NCBI RefSeq assembly: GCF_036320655.1
Contig: NZ_CP143258.1
Location: 2,332,001-2,396,000 of the forward strand
DNA length: 64,000 nt
Reading direction: 5' to 3'
Origin: Porphyromonas pogonae
GTDB lineage: Bacteria > Bacteroidota > Bacteroidia > Bacteroidales > Porphyromonadaceae
Under the pieces are notes generated by a model. It made no database searches. It had not been told where the DNA came from and saw only the letters and a list, made by a program, of their open reading frames with translations. The position numbers were made by a program, and so were the translations under genes. This document shows, piece after piece, positions 8,443 through 19,589 of the stretch (the first letter of the stretch is position 1; each line of letters opens with the position of its first letter).

Positions 8443-9174
8443 TTATTTAATGAGATACTTTGATTTTACTGTGATGGAAGCCGTCTTGAGCCTGTTTGAG
8501 GTGTTGAATGCCCCACCCCAGCTATAATCTTCATTAGAATTATATCCTACAATCTGAAATACTCCCATTTGAGAATTTACCAATTTTCCCACATGGCTTT
8601 TACTTCCTTCAGCAATTACTTGTGCTCTATTGAGAGCATCTTCAGATGCTTCTTGAAGCATTTTTATCTTAAGATCATTAAGCTTTGTATAGTAAAATCG
8701 AGGTTCCTCCGAGGCTATTTCCACTCCATCATTGATAAGCTCTGTAATATCACGCGACACGGATTCGACAAGATTGAGATCATGACTCTCAATTGTTATA
8801 CTTTGAGATAGCTCAAACCCTCCAAAAGATGTCACATAGTTGTTGCCTTCATATCGACTATCAGTCTTTTTCTCCAAAGCAACACTACTCAAGGTCAATG
8901 TACTATCAGGGATTCCTTTTGTTTTAAGATAACTTAAAACTTTGGAACGCATTCCTTTCAATTTAGAAAATCCCTCTTGCATATTATATTCCAGTGTACT
9001 GAATTTGGCAGACCATACTACAAGATCAGATTCAAAATTACGTTCTGCGATACCGGTAACCTGAATAGACTTATCTCCTCTCTTAGCCTTTACAGCTGAA
9101 TTCCCTATGGCATATGCGGCTAAGATCATACATATACCTATTATTGCTGCGATAATAATGTTGTCTTTTCTCAT
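8443..9174 (-). CDS. SIMPL (DUF541) domain protein
   Basis: A 243-residue protein with an N-terminal hydrophobic anchor (IIAAIIGICMILAAYAIG) and the SIMPL domain signature IQVTGIAERNFESDLVVWSA. The family is named for signalling molecule that associates with mouse pelle-like kinase; bacterial members such as BP26 are envelope proteins that form oligomers. Role here unknown. It is separated from DUF4878 by 48 bp and may head the same transcript. Confidence 0.8.
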   Translation of the reverse strand: MRKDNIIIAAIIGICMILAAYAIGNSAVKAKRGDKSIQVTGIAERNFESDLVVWSAKFSTLEYNMQEGFSKLKGMRSKVLSYLKTKGIPDSTLTLSSVALEKKTDSRYEGNNYVTSFGGFELSQSITIESHDLNLVESVSRDITELINDGVEIASEEPRFYYTKLNDLKIKMLQEASEDALNRAQVIAEGSKSHVGKLVNSQMGVFQIVGYNSNEDYSWGGAFNTSNRLKTASITVKSKYLIK

Positions 9175-9203
9175 ATTTTAGCATTTAACTCTTGCCTAAG
9201 TTA

Positions 9204-9234
9204 CAAAAAAAGCTTCGATTACACATCGAAGCTT
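9204..9234 (-). terminator. Terminator of trxB
   Basis: Perfect stem AAGCTTCGAT / ATCGAAGCTT with a 5-base loop, followed on the minus strand by a run of seven T. It lies 28 bp past the trxB stop. Confidence 0.85.
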
Positions 9235-9261
9235 GAAAAATAAACAAAAAAATGTTTACAA

Positions 9262-10206
9262 TTACAAAGAATGCTCTCCAAGATAGCGCTCCGCTTCTAT
9301 TGCGGCTTTACATCCGGAACCTGCAGCCGTAATGGCTTGGCGATACAAAGGATCTGCAACATCACCTGCGGCAAATACTCCCGGAACATTGGTACATGGG
9401 GTATTATTTTTTGTAATAATATACCCTACAGGATCAAGCTCCAGATAATCGGCAAAGATATCGGAATTAGGTTTATGACCTATAGCCAGAAAGAACCCAT
9501 CAATAGAAATATCAACATTTTCTTCGTCTGCTTCACCTTTGCGTTTTACCAAATGAGCACCCTCAACTCCGTTTTCACCAAAAAGGCCTAAGGTATTATG
9601 CTCAAAAAGCACTGTAATATTCTCAGCCTTCATTACTCGCTCCTGCATAATTTCGGAAGCTCTCAAGTAATTCTTACGTACTATAAGATAGACATGTTTA
9701 GCAAGGGAAGCCAGATACAAAGCTTCTTCACAAGCAGTATCCCCGCCTCCTACAACAGCCACATTCTTTCCTCTGTAGAAGAATCCGTCACAGGTAGCAC
9801 AAGCTGAAACTCCCATCCCGGCATATTTCTCTTCATCCGGCAAACCTAAATATTTAGCGGTTGCACCTGTAGAAATGATTACCGTATCGGCTTCAACAAT
9901 ATGCCCATCATCAAAAGTTATCTTATATGGAGCTTGGGATAGATCCGAAGCAACAGCTATACCGTTACGAATATCAGAACCGAAGCGAGCAGCTTGCTTT
10001 CTGAGCTGATCCATCATCTCGGGACCGGTAATACCTTCAGGATATCCGGGAAAGTTTTCTACCTCAGTGGTTGTTGTAAGCTGTCCTCCCGGTTGAAGTC
10101 CTTCGTAAAGAACGGGAGAAAGATTTGCTCTGGATGCATATATAGCTGCAGTGTAACCTGCGGGACCTGAACCTATAATAAGGCAACGTACATGTTCTGT
10201 AGTCAT
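9262..10206 (-). CDS. trxB: Thioredoxin-disulfide reductase
   Basis: A 314-residue FAD enzyme that passes electrons from NADPH to thioredoxin in the cytoplasm. Visible features: N-terminal FAD-binding GSGPAGYTAAIYASRA, the redox-active CATC pair near residue 137, the NADPH-binding VVGGGDTACEEA, and the C-terminal FAD motif FAAGDVADP. Length is normal. It follows serS by 39 bp on the same strand, so the two may share a transcript, and it ends at a strong hairpin terminator. Confidence 0.96.
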   Translation of the reverse strand: MTTEHVRCLIIGSGPAGYTAAIYASRANLSPVLYEGLQPGGQLTTTTEVENFPGYPEGITGPEMMDQLRKQAARFGSDIRNGIAVASDLSQAPYKITFDDGHIVEADTVIISTGATAKYLGLPDEEKYAGMGVSACATCDGFFYRGKNVAVVGGGDTACEEALYLASLAKHVYLIVRKNYLRASEIMQERVMKAENITVLFEHNTLGLFGENGVEGAHLVKRKGEADEENVDISIDGFFLAIGHKPNSDIFADYLELDPVGYIITKNNTPCTNVPGVFAAGDVADPLYRQAITAAGSGCKAAIEAERYLGEHSL

Positions 10207-11523: not shown

Positions 11524-11679
11524 GATTTTAAATCTGTATTAATAGTTTTATTAGGTTGTAAAATTAAAGAAAAACGTTCTGATTGCCCAATTATTAAGGA
11601 GCTGTTTTGTGTTCTATGTCCTTTTTTGATGGATATGGATTATCCGAAAAATAGTTTGAAACGTTTCACTCTATCATTT

Positions 11680-11866
11680 GAGACTGTTGCAAAAGTCAAC
11701 AGTCTCGTGGGTTTTGGAGGCAAAACCGACAAAAGAAACTTTGACCGGGCAGAGAGGGTAAATTACAAGGCGCTAAGAGTGAGCGCACAAGGAGTTTACT
11801 TCCGGTAAATGACCAAGTGCGAATCTCGCAAGCAACGCAGCAATTTGCCTGCTATGCAACAGTCTC
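11680..11866 (+). mobile_element. 187-bp MITE, copy B
   Basis: Full-length copy with ends GAGACTGTTGCA and TGCAACAGTCTC; here the two outer 12-mers are perfect inverted repeats. ATTT flanks both sides. It lies in the 0.5-kb gap between serS and rpmA, which holds nothing else but the rpmA terminator. Confidence 0.85.
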
Positions 11867-12887: not shown

Positions 12888-14069
12888 ATGGCAAATATAA
12901 CACTCTTTGCGCAAGCAATCGGCCAACTGCCGAAAGAAAAAATCAAAACAATCATTCGCAACGCCAAGACAGACAAGCACTGTAAGGGCTATGACACGTG
13001 GAGTCAGCTCATGAGCATGATGTTCTGTCAATTCTCTAATTGCGATTCGGTTAGAGATATTTCCAATGGTCTTCATTCTGCCAATGGCAATCTCAATCAC
13101 TTAGGAATAAGTCGTGCCCCCTCCAAGTCTACTGTTGCATACCAAAACGCTCATCGAGATAGTGAGGTATTCAGAGCTATTTATTATGCTGTCTTTCAAT
13201 ATTTAGGACAGCAGGCATCATGGAGAGGCACCAAATTTCGCTTCAAAGCCCCCATCAAGCTACTTGATTCCACTATGGTGACATTGACAATGGCACTTTA
13301 CGATTGGGCACATTACTCTACGACTAAAGGAGCCATAAAGATGCATACGTTACTTGATTATGACAGTCTTCTTCCTGAATTCGTGAACATTACTACCGGG
13401 AAATATTCGGACGATAAGGCATCTTTCGATATCCCCGTAGCCCCTCACTCAGTGGTAGTAGCTGATCGGGGATATTGCAATTTTGAATTGCTGAATTATT
13501 GGGACAGCAAGAAGGTATTTTTCGTCGTCAGACATAAGGATAACCTCCTCTACGAGCGTGTACGGGAGTTGGATTTACCTCAACACACAGCGCAAAACGT
13601 ACTGATAGACGAGATTATCGAGCTCAGGGGCGTTCAGACATCCAAAAAGTACCCGAAGCAAATCAGACGCATTACCGTCTGGAATGACGAACATGAGTTT
13701 ACCATCCAATTGCTCACAAACAACATGAGACTTGCTGCATCTACCATTGCCCAACTCTATAAGCAGCGGTGGCAAATTGAGATTTTCTTCCGAAACCTCA
13801 AGCAATTACTCCGAATAAAAAGTTTTATCGGCACTTCACGAAATGCCGTAGAAATTCAGATATGGACAGCCTTGACAACAATGCTGCTCCTTAGTTGGCT
13901 CAAACAAATAGCCCGCTACAAGTGGGCACTGGCAAATCTCGTAGTCTCTTTAAGACTGAATACATTTACCAAAATCGACCTTGAAAAGTGGCTCAACGAA
14001 CCTTTTACTCCGCCTCCAAATGACCAACTTTCTGAGTCAGCGGGATTCAAACTGATTATTTTTCGTTGA
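12888..14069 (+). CDS. IS4-family transposase
   Basis: A 393-residue DDE transposase. First Asp in LLDSTMVTL, second in VADRGYCN, and the IS4-type Y-x2-R-x3-E-x6-K signature in LYKQRWQIEIFFRNLK. N-terminal DUF4372-like region begins MANITLFAQAIGQLPKEK. Intact and full length, so potentially active. Confidence 0.93.
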   Translation: MANITLFAQAIGQLPKEKIKTIIRNAKTDKHCKGYDTWSQLMSMMFCQFSNCDSVRDISNGLHSANGNLNHLGISRAPSKSTVAYQNAHRDSEVFRAIYYAVFQYLGQQASWRGTKFRFKAPIKLLDSTMVTLTMALYDWAHYSTTKGAIKMHTLLDYDSLLPEFVNITTGKYSDDKASFDIPVAPHSVVVADRGYCNFELLNYWDSKKVFFVVRHKDNLLYERVRELDLPQHTAQNVLIDEIIELRGVQTSKKYPKQIRRITVWNDEHEFTIQLLTNNMRLAASTIAQLYKQRWQIEIFFRNLKQLLRIKSFIGTSRNAVEIQIWTALTTMLLLSWLKQIARYKWALANLVVSLRLNTFTKIDLEKWLNEPFTPPPNDQLSESAGFKLIIFR

Positions 14070-14190: not shown

Positions 14191-16143
14191 TTACTTCTGC
14201 TTTTTGTCCAGCACTTCGTAAGGCGAGTTTTTACTCAAATATTCAGGAACCAGCTCTTTGATCGCTTTTACTGATTCCATGACTTCTATTCTTTTGGCTG
14301 CGTCAATCATAGCATCGACGCAACGTGTTACTTCTTGCGGGTCACACTCTCTCACTTGAGCAATACGTATCTTAGGATTGGGTGTAGGCATAGTAGTTTC
14401 CTCCTCATTAAGCACTTCTTCATACAGTTTTTCACCCGGTCTCAAGCCACTGTATACAATAGGAATATCCACATCAGGAACAAATCCCGCCAACTTGATC
14501 ATACGTCTGGCCAATGTGTCGATTTTCATTGGTTGCCCCATATCAAAAGCAAAAATCTCACCTCCCTTTCCCATAGTTCCGGCTTCCAAAACAAGGCTAC
14601 AAGCCTCCGGGATAGTCATAAAATAGCGGATGATATCGGGATGTGTTACTGTTACGGGGCCACCCTCTTCAATCTGTTTTCTAAATAAGGGTATTACAGA
14701 GCCATTAGAACCTAAGACATTCCCAAAGCGAGTAGTGATAAATTTAGTAGATTCTTTACCGGACTTCTTTATCTCCGCATCGAGTGTTTGTACCATCATC
14801 TCAGCTACACGCTTGGTTGCACCCATAACATTGGTTGGATTCACGGCCTTGTCTGTAGAAACCATTACAAACTTCTCCACACCGTATTCTATTGCGTACA
14901 AAGCCAGCTGACGTGTTCCTTTTACATTCACACCTATCGATTCGCATGGATTTTCTTCCATGAGAGGCACATGCTTATAGGCAGCTGCGTGGAAAATATA
15001 TTGCGGATGATATTTTTCAAAAATATATTTCAACCTTTTAGAAGCTCTTATATCTCCTATCACAGGATGAAATTTCACATTACTTCCTGAAGACTCCAAT
15101 TCCAATCTAATATTATGCAATGGACTTTCTGCATTATCAAAAAGAATCAATTCTTTGAGATTCATTTTGGATAGCTGACGAGCGATTTCACTACCTATAG
15201 ATCCGGCAGCACCGGTTACCATTACTACCTTACCTTCGAGTTGGTTTTTCACACTTTCCATCGGCAGAGTTATCACGTTTCTGCCCAATAAGTCTTCAAT
15301 GCGTATTTCACGGATACGTTTACGAGCATGGGCAGGATCAGTCATTTTTTCATAATCAGGAGCCACCATCATCTCTATGTTGTTCTTAAGGCAGTATTCC
15401 ACCAATTCATCACTTTCTCTTTTTACCGAAGCAAAATCCGGGAAAATAATCATGTTAGGCTTTCCCTGACTCATCATTGCATCAATGTCTTCCATAGAAT
15501 CAAAGCCTCTTACGGGCACATCATTGATACGCATACCATTACGTTTATGTTCGCCTCTGGCAATAACTCGTGTAGGAGCATAAGGAGCCAAAAAGCCATT
15601 ATTTAAAAAGGTTATGAGTGATATGCTTCGTCCCATGTCTCCATAAACCCAAGCACTTCTCTTGAACGTAATAGGATTGATTACCCGGTGATACACATTT
15701 ACCATCATAGACCTAAAGCTTATAAGCAAAAATGTAGATACCACCCAGTCTATAAGAAGAAACATAAACAAGAACCTGAGAGGGAAATCATAAATTATAT
15801 GAACGGCGGAATACAACAAAACTACCTTGACTAACATTGCCAAGGAAACCCGGTTAAATTCTTTTATTGTAGAATGCCTGATGATACCTTTATGTGTTGA
15901 AAAAGAAAAGATAACCACCACAGAAGCCACCACAGAAGCCAAAATATAAAATAAAAGGTGACTAATCACATTGGCATGAAAAGGACCGTAATAATCAGGA
16001 AATACAGTTAAAAATGTAGCTATAACAGAACCGGCTACATCTAGCAAGAAAATAATCCACCTGTTAAAGTATGGCATATTGCTTTTTTTTCTTAGATATT
16101 CTGCCACAGCAGTCTTCCAATTCGAGGTCTCAGATGCTTTCAT
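14191..16143 (-). CDS. Membrane-anchored UDP-sugar 4,6-dehydratase (CapD/PglF/FlaA1 family)
   Basis: A 650-residue inner membrane protein. Residues about 25-150 hold four hydrophobic segments, then a CoA-binding-like Rossmann region, then the extended SDR domain with VTGAAGSIGSEIARQL for NAD binding. As in FlaA1/PglF enzymes the usual Tyr of the YxxxK motif is replaced (NVMGATKR). The family converts UDP-GlcNAc to a 4-keto-6-deoxy sugar, the first step to bacillosamine- or FucNAc-type residues in surface glycans. With the DegT aminotransferase at 22280 and the sugar transferase at 23453 it could supply an initiating diamino sugar; that link is inference because they are not contiguous. Confidence 0.9.
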   Translation of the reverse strand: MKASETSNWKTAVAEYLRKKSNMPYFNRWIIFLLDVAGSVIATFLTVFPDYYGPFHANVISHLLFYILASVVASVVVIFSFSTHKGIIRHSTIKEFNRVSLAMLVKVVLLYSAVHIIYDFPLRFLFMFLLIDWVVSTFLLISFRSMMVNVYHRVINPITFKRSAWVYGDMGRSISLITFLNNGFLAPYAPTRVIARGEHKRNGMRINDVPVRGFDSMEDIDAMMSQGKPNMIIFPDFASVKRESDELVEYCLKNNIEMMVAPDYEKMTDPAHARKRIREIRIEDLLGRNVITLPMESVKNQLEGKVVMVTGAAGSIGSEIARQLSKMNLKELILFDNAESPLHNIRLELESSGSNVKFHPVIGDIRASKRLKYIFEKYHPQYIFHAAAYKHVPLMEENPCESIGVNVKGTRQLALYAIEYGVEKFVMVSTDKAVNPTNVMGATKRVAEMMVQTLDAEIKKSGKESTKFITTRFGNVLGSNGSVIPLFRKQIEEGGPVTVTHPDIIRYFMTIPEACSLVLEAGTMGKGGEIFAFDMGQPMKIDTLARRMIKLAGFVPDVDIPIVYSGLRPGEKLYEEVLNEEETTMPTPNPKIRIAQVRECDPQEVTRCVDAMIDAAKRIEVMESVKAIKELVPEYLSKNSPYEVLDKKQK

Positions 16144-16667: not shown

Positions 16668-17543
16668 ATGAAGATTAATACACCCGGTATTTCATTACTA
16701 ATTCTGGCAACAGCCGTCTTTTTCTCAATTCAAGCGTGCTCCTCTGAGCACACGCCGGAAAAACCCAAAGTAAATCTTATAACATCTATTTCGGGCTCAT
16801 ACATGAAAGCACCGGTGTTACAAGAATCGGGAGCGGGAAATTTTACTAACGGGGATAAGATCAAGCTATTGGCTGCAACCGAAAAAACAACCGCTGCTCA
16901 TCTTTATACAATTGGCAACACATTATACTGGGACGAACTTGACCTGCCACCCATTACTGAGAGAGTAACTTTTGCTGCGATTTATCCCAATCAAAATCTC
17001 GATAATGAATATAAATGTCAAGTTGATGTTAGAACTGCCAGTGATAAAGATCCTCTCATCGCAGCACCTATCACTGTGCCCCTAAATAATACAGCGCCCC
17101 ACCAGCTCAAGTTTGCTCATGCCATGCACAAACTCGTTATCAATTATAAAACTGATGAAAATTACTCCTCTTTAGATATTAAAGAAATAAAAACAACTCT
17201 CCATAATATAGCTCCCGTAGCAATAATCAATGTACTCAAAGGTGGCACAGAAAAAACTACTGAAGAACGTGCTGATATCACTTTGTCAGGCCAAAATATT
17301 GTATTCATGCTCCCACCCCAAGAGGTAAGCGAAACAAAATTCACCCTTCAAATCCAAGGACGTACTTATACCTATCAGCTCCCTAAAACTCTACCTGACA
17401 ACAAAACAATTTTGAACAAAATAAAAGCCAACAGTATGCTGAAACTGGATCTTACCATCAAAAGAAATGGTGTCCATTTTGATTCTTTTATCATTTCAGG
17501 ATGGGATACACAGGGAGAAATATCTGATTCTATCACTATTTAA
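16668..17543 (+). CDS. Fimbrillin-like (Mfa/FimA-type) lipoprotein
   Basis: A 291-residue lipoprotein; the lipobox FSIQAC places the lipidated Cys at residue 24. The body resembles Mfa-like fimbrillins: a region of the type NFTNGDKIKLLA, then YWDELDLPP and VTFAAIYPNQ (compare the YW...vtFxAyyP pattern), and a second domain ending in GWDTQGEIS. In Porphyromonadaceae such proteins form or cap surface fimbriae after lipoprotein export. Because it directly precedes the protease-bearing gene (12-bp gap), it may serve as its partner or anchor. Which fimbrial role it has cannot be told. Confidence 0.78.
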   Translation: MKINTPGISLLILATAVFFSIQACSSEHTPEKPKVNLITSISGSYMKAPVLQESGAGNFTNGDKIKLLAATEKTTAAHLYTIGNTLYWDELDLPPITERVTFAAIYPNQNLDNEYKCQVDVRTASDKDPLIAAPITVPLNNTAPHQLKFAHAMHKLVINYKTDENYSSLDIKEIKTTLHNIAPVAIINVLKGGTEKTTEERADITLSGQNIVFMLPPQEVSETKFTLQIQGRTYTYQLPKTLPDNKTILNKIKANSMLKLDLTIKRNGVHFDSFIISGWDTQGEISDSITI

Positions 17544-17555
17544 TAACAAAAAGCT

Positions 17556-19274
17556 GTGTTTAGATACAAAAGAATATCTCTTGCATTTTTTTCCATCTTA
17601 GCTTTTATCAGTTGTTCTCAAGAAGACAAGAATGCTCCTCAAGTTTCAGATCCTTCTTCCGAAAGGATACAGATTTCTACATCCATTACTCAGGGAAAGA
17701 TGTCTCCATCAATGAGAGTAACCTCTCATCAGGATGGAACGGGCATGTTTGATGAAAATGATCAAATCACATGCTTTACGGACTCCAAATCACATCCATG
17801 GCAAAGTCATCTACTAACTTTAGAAAAAGGGCAATGGACTCCCAATCTTTATTGGAATGCTACGGCAACAACCGACGAGAAAGTAAATTTTCATGCCTAT
17901 TATCCCGCATTCAAGACTCCCGCAGGTAAGGAAACTTCGTTTTATGTCTCTGCTGACCAAACAAACCTTCAAGGCTTTACCGCTTCTGATCTATTAGGGG
18001 CTACTTGCTCGGCAGGGGTATCCCAAGAGGTTGTGCTAAGATTCAACCATCTCATGAGCCATGTAGAGGTATCCCTCCAAAGCAATGACAAAAGTTTTAC
18101 GGAAGCTCAGCTCAATGATGCCTCTGTCGAAATCAAATCTTACCTCGGAGGTAAACTTCTATTATCACAAAATCAAGTGGGAGAAACTGATGCATCTCGT
18201 TTGGAATGGGTAAAAAGCTATAAAAGAAACGGTGTATATTCAACAATACTGTTTCCGCAACCATTCTCACTACTCAAAGAAAAAGAAGACGATGATGATG
18301 GCTGGATACGGATAAAAATAGATAACCAAACCATATTGTATCAGGCTGCCGGCTCTCTCAACGGCAAAAGGTTCGATGCGTTGCAAAGCGGCCATAGCAT
18401 CAAAATTAAATTGAATCTGCAAAGAAAGCAGAAAGAAGCAGAACCCATCGAAGTATCGGAAGATGTGCGCAACAAAACCCTGTGGGTATATGGTCTCAAT
18501 ATGCCACAAAACCACGACTGGAAAGATGGGCTTGACTGGAAAGCGGAATATGGTTGGTTCGATTGTAACAAATCATATCCTCAAAAAGGAGGAGCCGATG
18601 CCAATCTCTGCTGGGCTGCTTCCGCTGCTGATATGATACACTGGTTTCTTAAGAATAACGAGTCAAACATCAAAAAATATGAAGAGATAAGTAAGAAAAA
18701 ATTCAGAGGCCCTACTCTCTATAAGGATCATACACATAGTGATGTTTTTGATTGGTTCAAGAAAATGCATCCTAACAATGGAGGAGATACAGATAATGGG
18801 ATCAATCACTTTATGCTTGGGGCATATATTAGTCCGGGAGCAATTTATAACGGAGAAGTAGATACTATTAAAGCGGGTTTTTTATATGATATTACAGGTG
18901 GCGTCAACTTAGTTACAGCAACAAAGCGAATCTCTATACGAAATGGAATGAATAGGCAAACTTTTAATCAAGAGATAAAAAAGGCATTACTCAATAAAAA
19001 AGCCATTGGCTTCTCTGTGCCAAGACATGCCATGGCAATATGGGGTGCAGACTTCGATGCAGACGAAAATGTGTCTGCTATTTACTATGTTGATAATAAT
19101 GATACCGGTAGCGGGGGAAAATTGTGGAGAAAAAGAATTTGCTTTAAAAACAACGAAACCTATATGGAAAGCGCTGTAGAAGGGTATTTCTCTTTCCCTA
19201 TAATAAGACTGGTATTCTTAGAATTAGGCGATAAACTGTGGAAAGACTATTTCGACAAACATCAGCCCTCTTAG
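17556..19274 (+). CDS. Fimbrillin-like lipoprotein with C-terminal IdeS/Mac-type cysteine protease domain
   Basis: A 572-residue lipoprotein starting at GTG; lipobox LAFISC lipidates Cys20. Residues about 30-300 look like a fimbrillin domain (GMFDENDQITCF, YWNATATTDEKVNFHAYYP). Residues about 305-570 resemble IdeS/Mac (MEROPS C66), the streptococcal IgG-cleaving protease: GWFDCNKSY, then ANLCWAASAADMIHWFLKNN with Cys352 where IdeS has its catalytic Cys94 (LLCGAATAGNMLHWW), then HAMAIWGADFDADENVSAIY with His491 for His262, and Asp513 for Asp284; the second acidic residue (Asp286) is Asn here with an Asp next to it. The fold match and fusion are read directly; IgG cleavage is inference. The second gene of the operon. 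Confidence 0.8.
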   Translation: MFRYKRISLAFFSILAFISCSQEDKNAPQVSDPSSERIQISTSITQGKMSPSMRVTSHQDGTGMFDENDQITCFTDSKSHPWQSHLLTLEKGQWTPNLYWNATATTDEKVNFHAYYPAFKTPAGKETSFYVSADQTNLQGFTASDLLGATCSAGVSQEVVLRFNHLMSHVEVSLQSNDKSFTEAQLNDASVEIKSYLGGKLLLSQNQVGETDASRLEWVKSYKRNGVYSTILFPQPFSLLKEKEDDDDGWIRIKIDNQTILYQAAGSLNGKRFDALQSGHSIKIKLNLQRKQKEAEPIEVSEDVRNKTLWVYGLNMPQNHDWKDGLDWKAEYGWFDCNKSYPQKGGADANLCWAASAADMIHWFLKNNESNIKKYEEISKKKFRGPTLYKDHTHSDVFDWFKKMHPNNGGDTDNGINHFMLGAYISPGAIYNGEVDTIKAGFLYDITGGVNLVTATKRISIRNGMNRQTFNQEIKKALLNKKAIGFSVPRHAMAIWGADFDADENVSAIYYVDNNDTGSGGKLWRKRICFKNNETYMESAVEGYFSFPIIRLVFLELGDKLWKDYFDKHQPS

Positions 19275-19360: not shown

Positions 19361-19402
19361 ATCTCCGACCGAAATGATATCAATGCTGCAGTATCCCCCT
19401 TG

Positions 19403-19589
19403 GATACTGTTGCAAAAATCAACAGTCTCGTGGATTTTGGAGGCAAAACCGACAAAAGACACTTTGACCGGGCAGAGAGGATAAAGTGCAAGGCGCTAAG
19501 AGTGAGTGCACAGGGAGTTTACTTCAGGTAAATGACCAAGCGAGAATCTCGCAAGCAACGAAGCAATTTGCCTGCTATTCAACGGTCTC
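19403..19589 (+). mobile_element. 187-bp MITE, copy C
   Basis: Full length but with a damaged left end (GATACTGTTGCA instead of GAGACTGTTGCA) and one mismatch in the left hairpin; right end TGCTATTCAACGGTCTC. No clear target duplication remains, so this is probably an older copy. It fills most of the gap between the IdeS-like gene and the ATPase gene. Confidence 0.8.

What the first reader, a model, noticed from the sequence alone, without database searches (positions are those of the whole stretch)
17556..19274. IdeS/Mac-like cysteine protease domain fused to a fimbrillin-like lipoprotein
Seen: residues 305-570 align by eye with streptococcal IdeS in the catalytic Cys block (NLCWAASAADMIHWFLKNN), the His block (HAMAIWGADFDADENVSAIY) and the Asp that follows it 22 residues later; order and spacing of Cys352, His491 and Asp513 are right. 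Known: IdeS is a secreted IgG-specific protease. Inference: here the enzyme would be held on the cell surface or on fimbriae by a lipidated fimbrillin-like half, an antibody-degrading appendage. The IdeS Asp286 position is Asn with an adjacent Asp, so activity or specificity may differ.
Basis: partly seen in the sequence, partly recalled or inferred. Interest (0 to 1): 0.8.

Follow-up and report, generated by a model that had tools for sequence, protein, structure and literature searches.

The report
Protease fused to fimbrillin, plus partner
A bacterium of the Porphyromonas family carries a two-gene kit, found in many gut relatives and apparently passed between them, that would hold a relative of antibody- and complement-cutting enzymes on the cell surface by a pilus-type domain; what it cuts is unknown.

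Summary
ORF 17556-19274 is a predicted lipoprotein with a fimbrillin-like half (PF13149) and a papain-like Mac-1/IdeS half (PF09028, MEROPS C66), by profiles, PDB sequence search and predicted structure. Lys339, Cys352, His491 and Asn515 are invariant in the 33 fimbrillin-Mac (fim-Mac) rows aligned. The "odd" Asn is thus the family norm, as in Treponema denticola T-Mac. The "IgG-degrading" inference is weak: T-Mac did not cut human IgG or IgA but cut C3, C3b, C4 and factor H.

New here: the gene is half of a conserved two-gene cassette. A dedicated ~290-residue fimbrillin-like lipoprotein lies next to the fusion in 35 of 39 loci with a visible fusion, and in 0 of 12 Mac loci without one. In 393 Bacteroidales genomes its strong matches occur only beside fim-Mac genes. 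In the window it lies upstream (16668-17543), elsewhere downstream. Near-identical copies in different Bacteroidales families point to horizontal transfer. Best model: an active surface cysteine protease in a two-subunit fimbrillin assembly, aimed at an unidentified host immune protein. A protease-tipped mini-fimbria is possible but unproven.

The parts
17556..19274 (+). fimbrillin-Mac fusion (fim-Mac), 572 aa predicted lipoprotein, GTG start
16668..17543 (+). dedicated partner: 291 aa fimbrillin-like predicted lipoprotein, ends 12 bp before the fusion gene
   Evidence: PF13149 E 2e-19; 208 bits against a partner HMM built without it, while the 32 fim halves reach at most 66.5; AF2 model pLDDT 80, pTM 0.75
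17613..17615 (+). codon of predicted lipidated Cys20 (AFIS|C-SQEDK)
   Evidence: loose pattern scan (the stricter one missed it); surface export signals as in PMC5080379 (abstract and passages)
17715..17717 (+). codon of Arg54, conserved basic residue in a disordered loop between first strand and core
   Evidence: R/K exactly 7 before the motif in 31 of 34 fim-Mac proteins where the motif pattern was found, of 39 tried; loop mostly pLDDT under 50
17739..18437 (+). Mfa_like_1 (fimbrillin-like) domain, residues 62-294
   Evidence: Foldseek to 4k4k/4dgu
18540..19106 (+). Mac-1 profile match, residues 329-517 (the aligned domain runs on to the C terminus)
18570..18572 (+). Lys339 codon (IdeS Lys84, oxyanion hole)
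   Evidence: Lys in all 50 of 51 rows that have a letter there
18609..18611 (+). Cys352 codon (nucleophile)
   Evidence: Cys in 51 of 51 rows
19026..19028 (+). His491 codon
   Evidence: His in 51 of 51 rows
19092..19094 (+). Asp513 codon (IdeS Asp284)
   Evidence: Asp in 48 of 51 rows, Glu 2, Asn 1
19098..19100 (+). Asn515 codon (IdeS Asp286, T-Mac Asn585)
   Evidence: Asn in 33 of 33 fim-Mac rows, 45 of 51 in all, Asp in 6
16737..16739 (+). codon of predicted lipidated Cys24 of the partner
16809..16811 (+). codon of Lys48 of the partner, the conserved basic residue in a disordered loop
   Evidence: R/K exactly 8 before the GxG motif in 30 of 30 partners tested, of 36 partner genes seen beside visible fusions, window included

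Best explanation
A two-gene cassette for a surface-held cysteine protease. Both proteins are exported as lipoproteins (predicted). The fusion protein presents a papain-type protease (Cys352-His491-Asp513/Asn515, Lys339 in the oxyanion hole) on a fimbrillin-like base (supported by profile, predicted fold and invariance). The second gene makes a fimbrillin-like protein dedicated to this base (supported by linkage). The two are inferred to join through their fimbrillin domains, most likely by strand donation as in type V pilins: each has a first strand, then a flexible loop with a conserved basic residue where a trypsin-like protease could cut; the partner has a free, low-confidence C-terminal tail that could donate a strand; the fusion, whose C terminus is occupied by the enzyme, could accept it but not donate one. 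The protease is inferred to cut a host immune protein (immunoglobulin or complement) near the cell surface. Which one is not known.
For: Protease. Partner linkage: 35 of 39 loci with a visible fusion against 0 of 12 without one (Fisher p 1e-8, overstated because several loci are near copies of each other). In 393 Bacteroidales genomes the 6 partner matches of 269 bits or more are all next to fim-Mac genes and the only other match at E<=1e-20 scores 87 bits; 4 of these 6 are, or closely resemble, members of the search alignment, so the weight lies in the lack of strong matches elsewhere. The window pair belongs to the same two families. Lipoprotein signals: 33 of 39 fim-Mac proteins and 30 of 30 partners by a loose pattern. 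Basic residue in the loop; strand, loop and tail. Transfer: 98.5-99.8% DNA identity over 2.9-3.5 kb between some loci. Precedent for a probable lipoprotein with a beta-sandwich N part and a Mac C part acting on complement: T-Mac (PMC11833123).
Against: No experiment shows that the two proteins touch. 4 of 39 fusions lack the partner within the stretch held (L052, L074, L078, L089). The own genome has no C25 gingipain match (17 of 26 genomes of the genus do) and no C11 protease match, so the processing enzyme is unidentified. Whether the basic residue is commoner here than in other fimbrillins was not tested. pTM of the fusion model is only 0.54. The partner is less conserved than the Mac domain (mean identity 0.36 against 0.41 over 210 pairs). 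Gene order in the window is the reverse of that in all relatives that have the partner. An immune substrate rests on analogy alone.
Confidence: 0.55

Rival explanations
1. IgG-specific protease like IdeS.
For: Sequence and fold match to IdeS.
Against: 20-23% identity to the streptococcal enzymes in the structural alignments. Asp286 is Asn and the Tyr255 loop aligns to a gap, both as described for T-Mac, which does not cut human IgG. IdeS needs an extended Fc exosite (PMC9759587 passages); I did not test whether it is conserved here. Most relatives are gut species, where IgG is not the main antibody (recalled).
Confidence: 0.15
2. T-Mac-like complement protease: cuts C3/C3b/C4 or factor H.
For: T-Mac shares Asn at +24 after His and the lack of Tyr255, and is likely also a surface lipoprotein with a beta-sandwich N part.
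Against: Identity to T-Mac is low (16-18% in the structural alignments); the N-terminal modules differ; complement is scarce in the gut lumen (recalled).
Confidence: 0.3
3. The partner is a chaperone, inhibitor or substrate-catching protein for the protease and not a structural subunit (compare the mycoplasma MIB-MIP pair, recalled).
For: Strict linkage fits any dedicated helper.
Against: The partner has the same fold as the base of the fusion and pilin-like strand, loop and tail; it does not evolve faster than the base (mean identity 0.36 against 0.34 over 210 pairs), unlike a typical arms-race binding protein.
Confidence: 0.2
4. The protease serves nutrition or competition (mucus or bacterial proteins), not immune evasion.
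For: Commensal distribution by record titles; many surface lipoproteins of this phylum serve nutrition (abstract of PMC5080379).
Against: The Mac/Ide family members whose substrates I know of (T-Mac, IdeC, others recalled) act on immune proteins.
Confidence: 0.15
5. The neighbour is just one of many tandem fimbrillin genes and has no link with the protease.
For: Fimbrillin-like genes are common in the order (recalled).
Against: The partner family forms its own profile group and strong matches are found only beside fim-Mac genes.
Confidence: 0.03

Closest known systems
T-Mac / TDE0362 of Treponema denticola (PDB 9arc, 9mdo; PMC11833123)
   Same: Mac-1 domain at C terminus, Cys-His-Asn with an acidic residue at +22, no Tyr255; likely a lipoprotein with beta-sandwich N-terminal part
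   Different: N part is bacterial Ig-like domains, not fimbrillin; no partner gene is described in the passages I read; 16-18% identity
IdeS / Mac-1 of Streptococcus pyogenes (PDB 2au1, 1y08, 2avw)
   Same: Papain-like fold, Cys, His, Asp284 and Lys84 equivalents
   Different: Secreted, without a fimbrillin half, Asp286 and Tyr255, IgG specific; here a predicted lipoprotein fusion, Asn515, no Tyr255 in the alignment
IdeC of Streptococcus canis (PDB 9hb1, 9hb2; PMC12418751)
   Same: Fold and catalytic network
   Different: Cuts IgG; streptococcal; no fimbrillin half
Type V pilins FimA/Mfa1-4 of Porphyromonas gingivalis and fimbrillin-like 4k4k/4dgu of Bacteroides
   Same: Fold of both fimbrillin domains; lipoprotein route; first strand and conserved basic residue in a flexible loop
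   Different: Weaker match to true pilins (FimA 6kmf E 1.4e-4) than to 4k4k (E 1.6e-12); the C terminus of the fusion leads into an enzyme; no pilus gene set seen beside it
Mycoplasma MIB-MIP (antibody binding protein plus protease; recalled, and one search listing)
   Same: Two-gene logic of a protease with a dedicated companion
   Different: MIP is a serine protease and neither protein is related (recalled)

Membership tests
MEROPS C66 / Pfam PF09028 (Mac-1) | Profile match over the curated cut-off | tested here: met
   46.1 bits against 20.3; that C66 is PF09028 is stated in PMC10318531 (passage)
MEROPS C66 / Pfam PF09028 (Mac-1) | Cys-His-Asp/Asn with Lys of the oxyanion hole, right order and spacing | tested here: met
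MEROPS C66 / Pfam PF09028 (Mac-1) | Papain-like two-lobe fold | tested here: met
   Predicted model; the 12 best Foldseek hits are Mac-1/IdeS/IdeC/T-Mac; not an experimental structure
IdeS-type IgG protease | Asp286 and Tyr255 that secure Lys84 | tested here: not met
   Asn515; the Tyr255 loop aligns to a gap (residue roles)
IdeS-type IgG protease | Cleaves IgG in the lower hinge | not testable with these tools
   Needs an assay
T-Mac-like | Asn at +24 after His, acidic residue at +22, no Tyr255 | tested here: met
   T-Mac residues
T-Mac-like | Bacterial Ig-like N-terminal domains | tested here: not met
   Only Mfa_like_1 and Mac-1 found
T-Mac-like | Cuts C3, C3b, C4, factor H | not testable with these tools
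   Needs an assay
Type V pilin (FimA/Mfa1) | Fimbrillin fold and lipoprotein signal | tested here: met
   for both genes; by prediction only, and the fusion passes only the looser lipobox pattern
Type V pilin (FimA/Mfa1) | First strand removed by a trypsin-like protease at a basic residue | tested here: inconclusive
   Conserved basic residue in a disordered loop; no C25 or C11 protease match in the genome; control with other fimbrillins not run
Type V pilin (FimA/Mfa1) | C-terminal donor strand | tested here: inconclusive
   Partner: low-confidence tail 280-291 next to conserved Trp279/Gln282. Fusion: C terminus continues into the protease, so not met there
Type V pilin (FimA/Mfa1) | Gene cluster with shaft, anchor and tip genes | tested here: inconclusive
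   Of 4 window proteins scanned with Pfam only the two cassette proteins are fimbrillin-like; the 4 P_gingi_FimA matches lie elsewhere in the genome. The Mfa2 anchor family was not searched

The most novel reading that the evidence does not exclude
The cassette encodes a complete portable mini-fimbria: the partner polymerises by strand exchange into a short shaft and the fusion, which can accept but not donate a strand, caps it as an enzyme tip, giving a protease-tipped pilus that gut Bacteroidales pass among themselves to cut antibodies or complement away from the cell surface.
Probability: 0.2. Interest if true: 0.85.

Novelty: new variant of a known kind. Interest (0 to 1): 0.6.

Why it matters
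Mac/Ide proteases are characterised mainly from streptococci and one oral spirochaete (papers seen here and recall). Here the family forms a predicted lipid-anchored cassette with its own companion, spread and apparently exchanged among gut Bacteroidales; 9 of the 52 record titles carry poultry or bird epithets (my count) and several are human gut species (recalled). If active on immunoglobulin or complement it would be a commensal way of handling mucosal immunity, a source of new antibody-cutting tools, and the first case known to me of a pilin-type domain carrying a protease. It makes a question testable: can type V pilin assembly display enzymes? The own genome hints at a wider theme, since three of the four Mfa_like_1 genes found there are enzyme fusions (one Mac, two nucleases) and the fourth is the Mac partner.

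Tried and rejected
One search used a wrong Pfam accession (PF09416) and says nothing. A first genome-contig scan with the window domain alone found no relative; an alignment query then found 52 loci. I considered whether the repeat that flanks the region (11677-11866 and 19400-19589) marks a mobile element with the cassette: it has at least 40 copies in the genome (list ends at 40), so it says nothing special. I considered single descent of the fimbrillin fusion: the Mac tree needs 6 label changes and one clade of all 33 fim rows is rejected (p 0.0004), but two split-frame rows (L063, L078) count as non-fim there, and a clade of 40 rows that also holds these and five short forms is not rejected (p 0.17). 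The tree puts the window with the fim and other rows (support 85/97), but grouping it with stalk-type Porphyromonadaceae rows is not rejected (p 0.37), so its place is unresolved. Gingipain or C11 processing was sought and not found in the own genome. A first strict lipoprotein pattern found 19 of 39 fim-Mac proteins (missing the window's) and 17 of 30 partners; the looser one gives 33 of 39 and 30 of 30, so these counts depend on the pattern.

Sets and dropped rows. Two sets of 39 differ: the 39 loci of the linkage count are genome-contig loci, four of them split-frame copies that the first labelling missed (L063, L078, L099, L100) and all without the window; the 39 fim-Mac proteins are 35 genome contigs ORFs, 3 genome search ORFs and the window. 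L095 has the partner but its fusion end lies off the contig, so it is in neither group of 39 and 12. Both sets hold near copies (L070/L071/L072/L073/L102; L090/L091/L097). Tree and residue counts used 51 of 64 extracted proteins (13 fragments or duplicates dropped): 42 genome contigs, 8 genome search and the window. In one search the motif was found in 34 of 39; in L053 and L054 the hit is probably not the real motif and L042_G has the basic residue 8 before, which leaves 31 of 34 at exactly 7. The partner set is the window and 29 of the 35 partners; L053, L056, L060, L063, L099 and L100 were not in it. The rate comparison used 21 loci. The identity blocks come from 20 of 52 loci picked by me, pieces over 600 bp at E 1e-50 only. 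In one search the best 6 candidates per genome were scored. One search covered 34 of 35 fim loci; one search repeated the test on all 52.

Literature: the listings of ten searches showed no title or abstract start about a fimbrillin-Mac fusion or its partner; two searches returned nothing. The library lacks most subscription papers. PMC11833123 reports relatives from the Cytophaga-Fusobacterium-Bacteroides group (passage), so Bacteroidota relatives are already in print; the passages I saw do not describe this architecture or partner. PMC11316588 was looked into (passages) and not used.

Full report
What is there. The ORF 17556-19274 (+) encodes 572 residues from a GTG start. It has a predicted lipoprotein signal (AFIS|C20-SQEDK; loose pattern), a Mfa_like_1 domain at 62-294 (E 2.9e-21) and a Mac-1 domain at 329-517 (E 4.5e-12), both over the curated cut-offs. 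Twelve bases upstream ends another fimbrillin-like gene with a lipoprotein signal, 16668-17543, 291 aa (E 2e-19). The window lies in a 2.92 Mb single-contig genome. Two genomes which the tool calls same genus (G019, G018) match in contig length two records titled Porphyromonadaceae bacterium (L077, L051), so the bacterium belongs to that family; the genus is probably Porphyromonas (inference).

The protease half. phmmer against the PDB lists 9 sequences, all Mac/Ide-type: 2au1 E 9.7e-14, T-Mac C0362 E 4.1e-12. The AlphaFold2 model, built from an alignment of 36 members, has pLDDT 82.7 and pTM 0.54, so the domains are good but their mutual placement is not. Foldseek puts Mac-1/IdeS first (E 2.4e-17) and Bacteroides fimbrillin-like structures 4k4k and 4dgu next (E about 2e-12); true type V pilins come lower (Mfa4 2e-5, FimA 1.4e-4). 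In 51 aligned Mac domains Cys352 and His491 are invariant, Lys339 is Lys in all 50 rows with a letter, Asp513 is Asp in 48, and Asn515 is Asn in 45 and in all 33 fim-Mac rows. In IdeC, Asp284 completes the triad, Lys84 helps form the oxyanion hole and Asp286 holds Lys84 (PMC12418751, passages). T-Mac has Glu583 and Asn585 at these two places and no equivalent of Tyr255 (PMC11833123, passages). The window protein has Asp513 and Asn515, and the Tyr255 loop aligns to a gap. So it should be an active enzyme, and in these respects it resembles T-Mac more than IdeS. T-Mac did not cut human IgG or IgA, but cut C3, C3b, C4 and factor H (section read). This is why IgG should not be assumed.

Relatives. 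A Mac-1 gene is found in 7 of 38 genomes of the family, 10 of 393 of the order and 3 of 395 of a phylum draw, all three in the order; each count includes the own genome. The other Porphyromonadaceae Mac genes that I read have Pro/Asp-rich stalks (L012, L013, L015), Ig-like stretches (L016, L017; the Pfam Big_1 match in L017 is below its cut-off) or no N-terminal half (L014). A scan of named genomes gave 52 loci, mostly Bacteroidales whose titles point to the gut: Alistipes, Barnesiella, Rikenella, Phocaeicola, Bacteroides, Mediterranea, Millionella. Pfam finds Mfa_like_1 in 30 of 36 members of A2 (window included) and 5 of 11 of A3. The scan patterns came from an alignment in which 6 of 11 rows were fim-Mac, so these fractions are not unbiased.

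The partner. Among the 52 loci, 39 show a fimbrillin-Mac fusion, counting four split-frame copies that the first labelling missed; 35 of the 39 have a partner gene directly downstream, 0 of the 12 loci without a fusion have one, and L095 (partner present) is cut before the fusion end. Fisher's p is 1e-8, overstated since several loci are near copies. The window partner scores 208 bits against a partner profile built without it, where 32 fim halves reach at most 66.5; the window fim half scores 166.5 against the fim-half profile, where 29 partners reach at most 98. So both window genes belong to the two cassette families and only their order is swapped. Searching 393 Bacteroidales genomes (apparently the draw) with the partner alignment gave 7 matches at E<=1e-20: six of 269-371 bits in five genomes, all beside fim-Mac genes, and one of 87 bits in a genome without a Mac match. 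Four of the six are, or closely resemble, members of the alignment; only the best 6 candidates per genome were scored. The partner therefore appears dedicated.

Transfer. Copies in records titled Alistipes sp. An66, Barnesiella sp. An55 and Muribaculum sp. An289 are 98.5-99.7% identical over 3.1-3.4 kb, and Barnesiella sp. An22 and Alistipes sp. Marseille-P5061 98.9% over 2.9 kb. Where flanks of several kilobases were at hand (L073/L102, L091/L097) the listed identity stops within about 0.35 kb of the cassette (20 chosen loci, pieces over 600 bp). This fits horizontal transfer of the cassette as a unit; mis-binned records could mimic part of it.

How it may be built. In the fusion a strand at 40-44 is followed by a loop (48-62, mostly pLDDT under 50) with Arg54; in the partner a strand at 37-41 is followed by such a loop (44-51) with Lys48, and residues 280-291 at the C terminus are of low confidence. 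A basic residue stands exactly 7 before the GxG motif in 31 of 34 fim-Mac proteins where the motif was found (39 tried) and exactly 8 before in 30 of 30 partners tested. In P. gingivalis, FimA and Mfa1 are lipoproteins cut by Arg-gingipains; in FimA this frees a groove for a C-terminal strand of the next subunit, while for Mfa1 the donor strand is not settled (PMC5954841, passages). By analogy the fusion could accept the tail of the partner. Its own C terminus runs into the protease, which would make it a terminal subunit. Against this: the genome has no C25 gingipain match, though 17 of 26 in the genus do, and no C11 match; four FimA-type matches lie elsewhere in the genome; and no polymerisation is shown. 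I did not test whether the basic residue is special to this group.

Wider theme. Four Mfa_like_1 genes were found in the own genome: the window pair and two more, each fused to a DNA/RNA non-specific endonuclease (E 1.3e-41 and 2.5e-40). Fimbrillin-like domains thus carry enzymes more than once here.

Verdict. Observation confirmed and extended; IgG specificity unsupported; a conserved, apparently mobile two-gene surface protease cassette is the best reading.

Noticed in passing
own genome G000:C1 about 731224-731928 (L033, L037) and 1274254-1274922 (L035, L038), outside the window: Two further Mfa_like_1 proteins, each fused C-terminally to a DNA/RNA non-specific endonuclease (PF01223).
   Followed up: partly
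window 11677-11866 and 19400-19589: Two copies (92% alike) of a dispersed repeat; a core of about 160 nt has at least 39 further copies at 95-97% identity across the genome (list ends at 40).
   Followed up: partly
window 12888-14069: IS4 family transposase gene near the cassette, next to what looks by eye like a polysaccharide gene (14191-16143).
   Followed up: no
L014 (G032) 8772-9518: A Mac domain ORF that opens in mid-domain with no N-terminal half in any forward frame just upstream, about 1.1 kb after a long gene that looks phage-tail-like by eye; looks like a remnant.
   Followed up: partly
L057, L063, L072, L078, L096, L099, L100: Cassette copies whose reading frames are split; decay, phase-type change or assembly error not told apart.
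   Followed up: no
L093 (Mycoplasma bradburyae), L098 (Peptostreptococcaceae MAG, S-layer domains), L088 (Spirochaetales MAG): Mac-1 domains outside Bacteroidota with other or no visible anchors.
   Followed up: no
own genome: No C25 gingipain match, though 17 of 26 genomes of the genus have one.
   Followed up: partly
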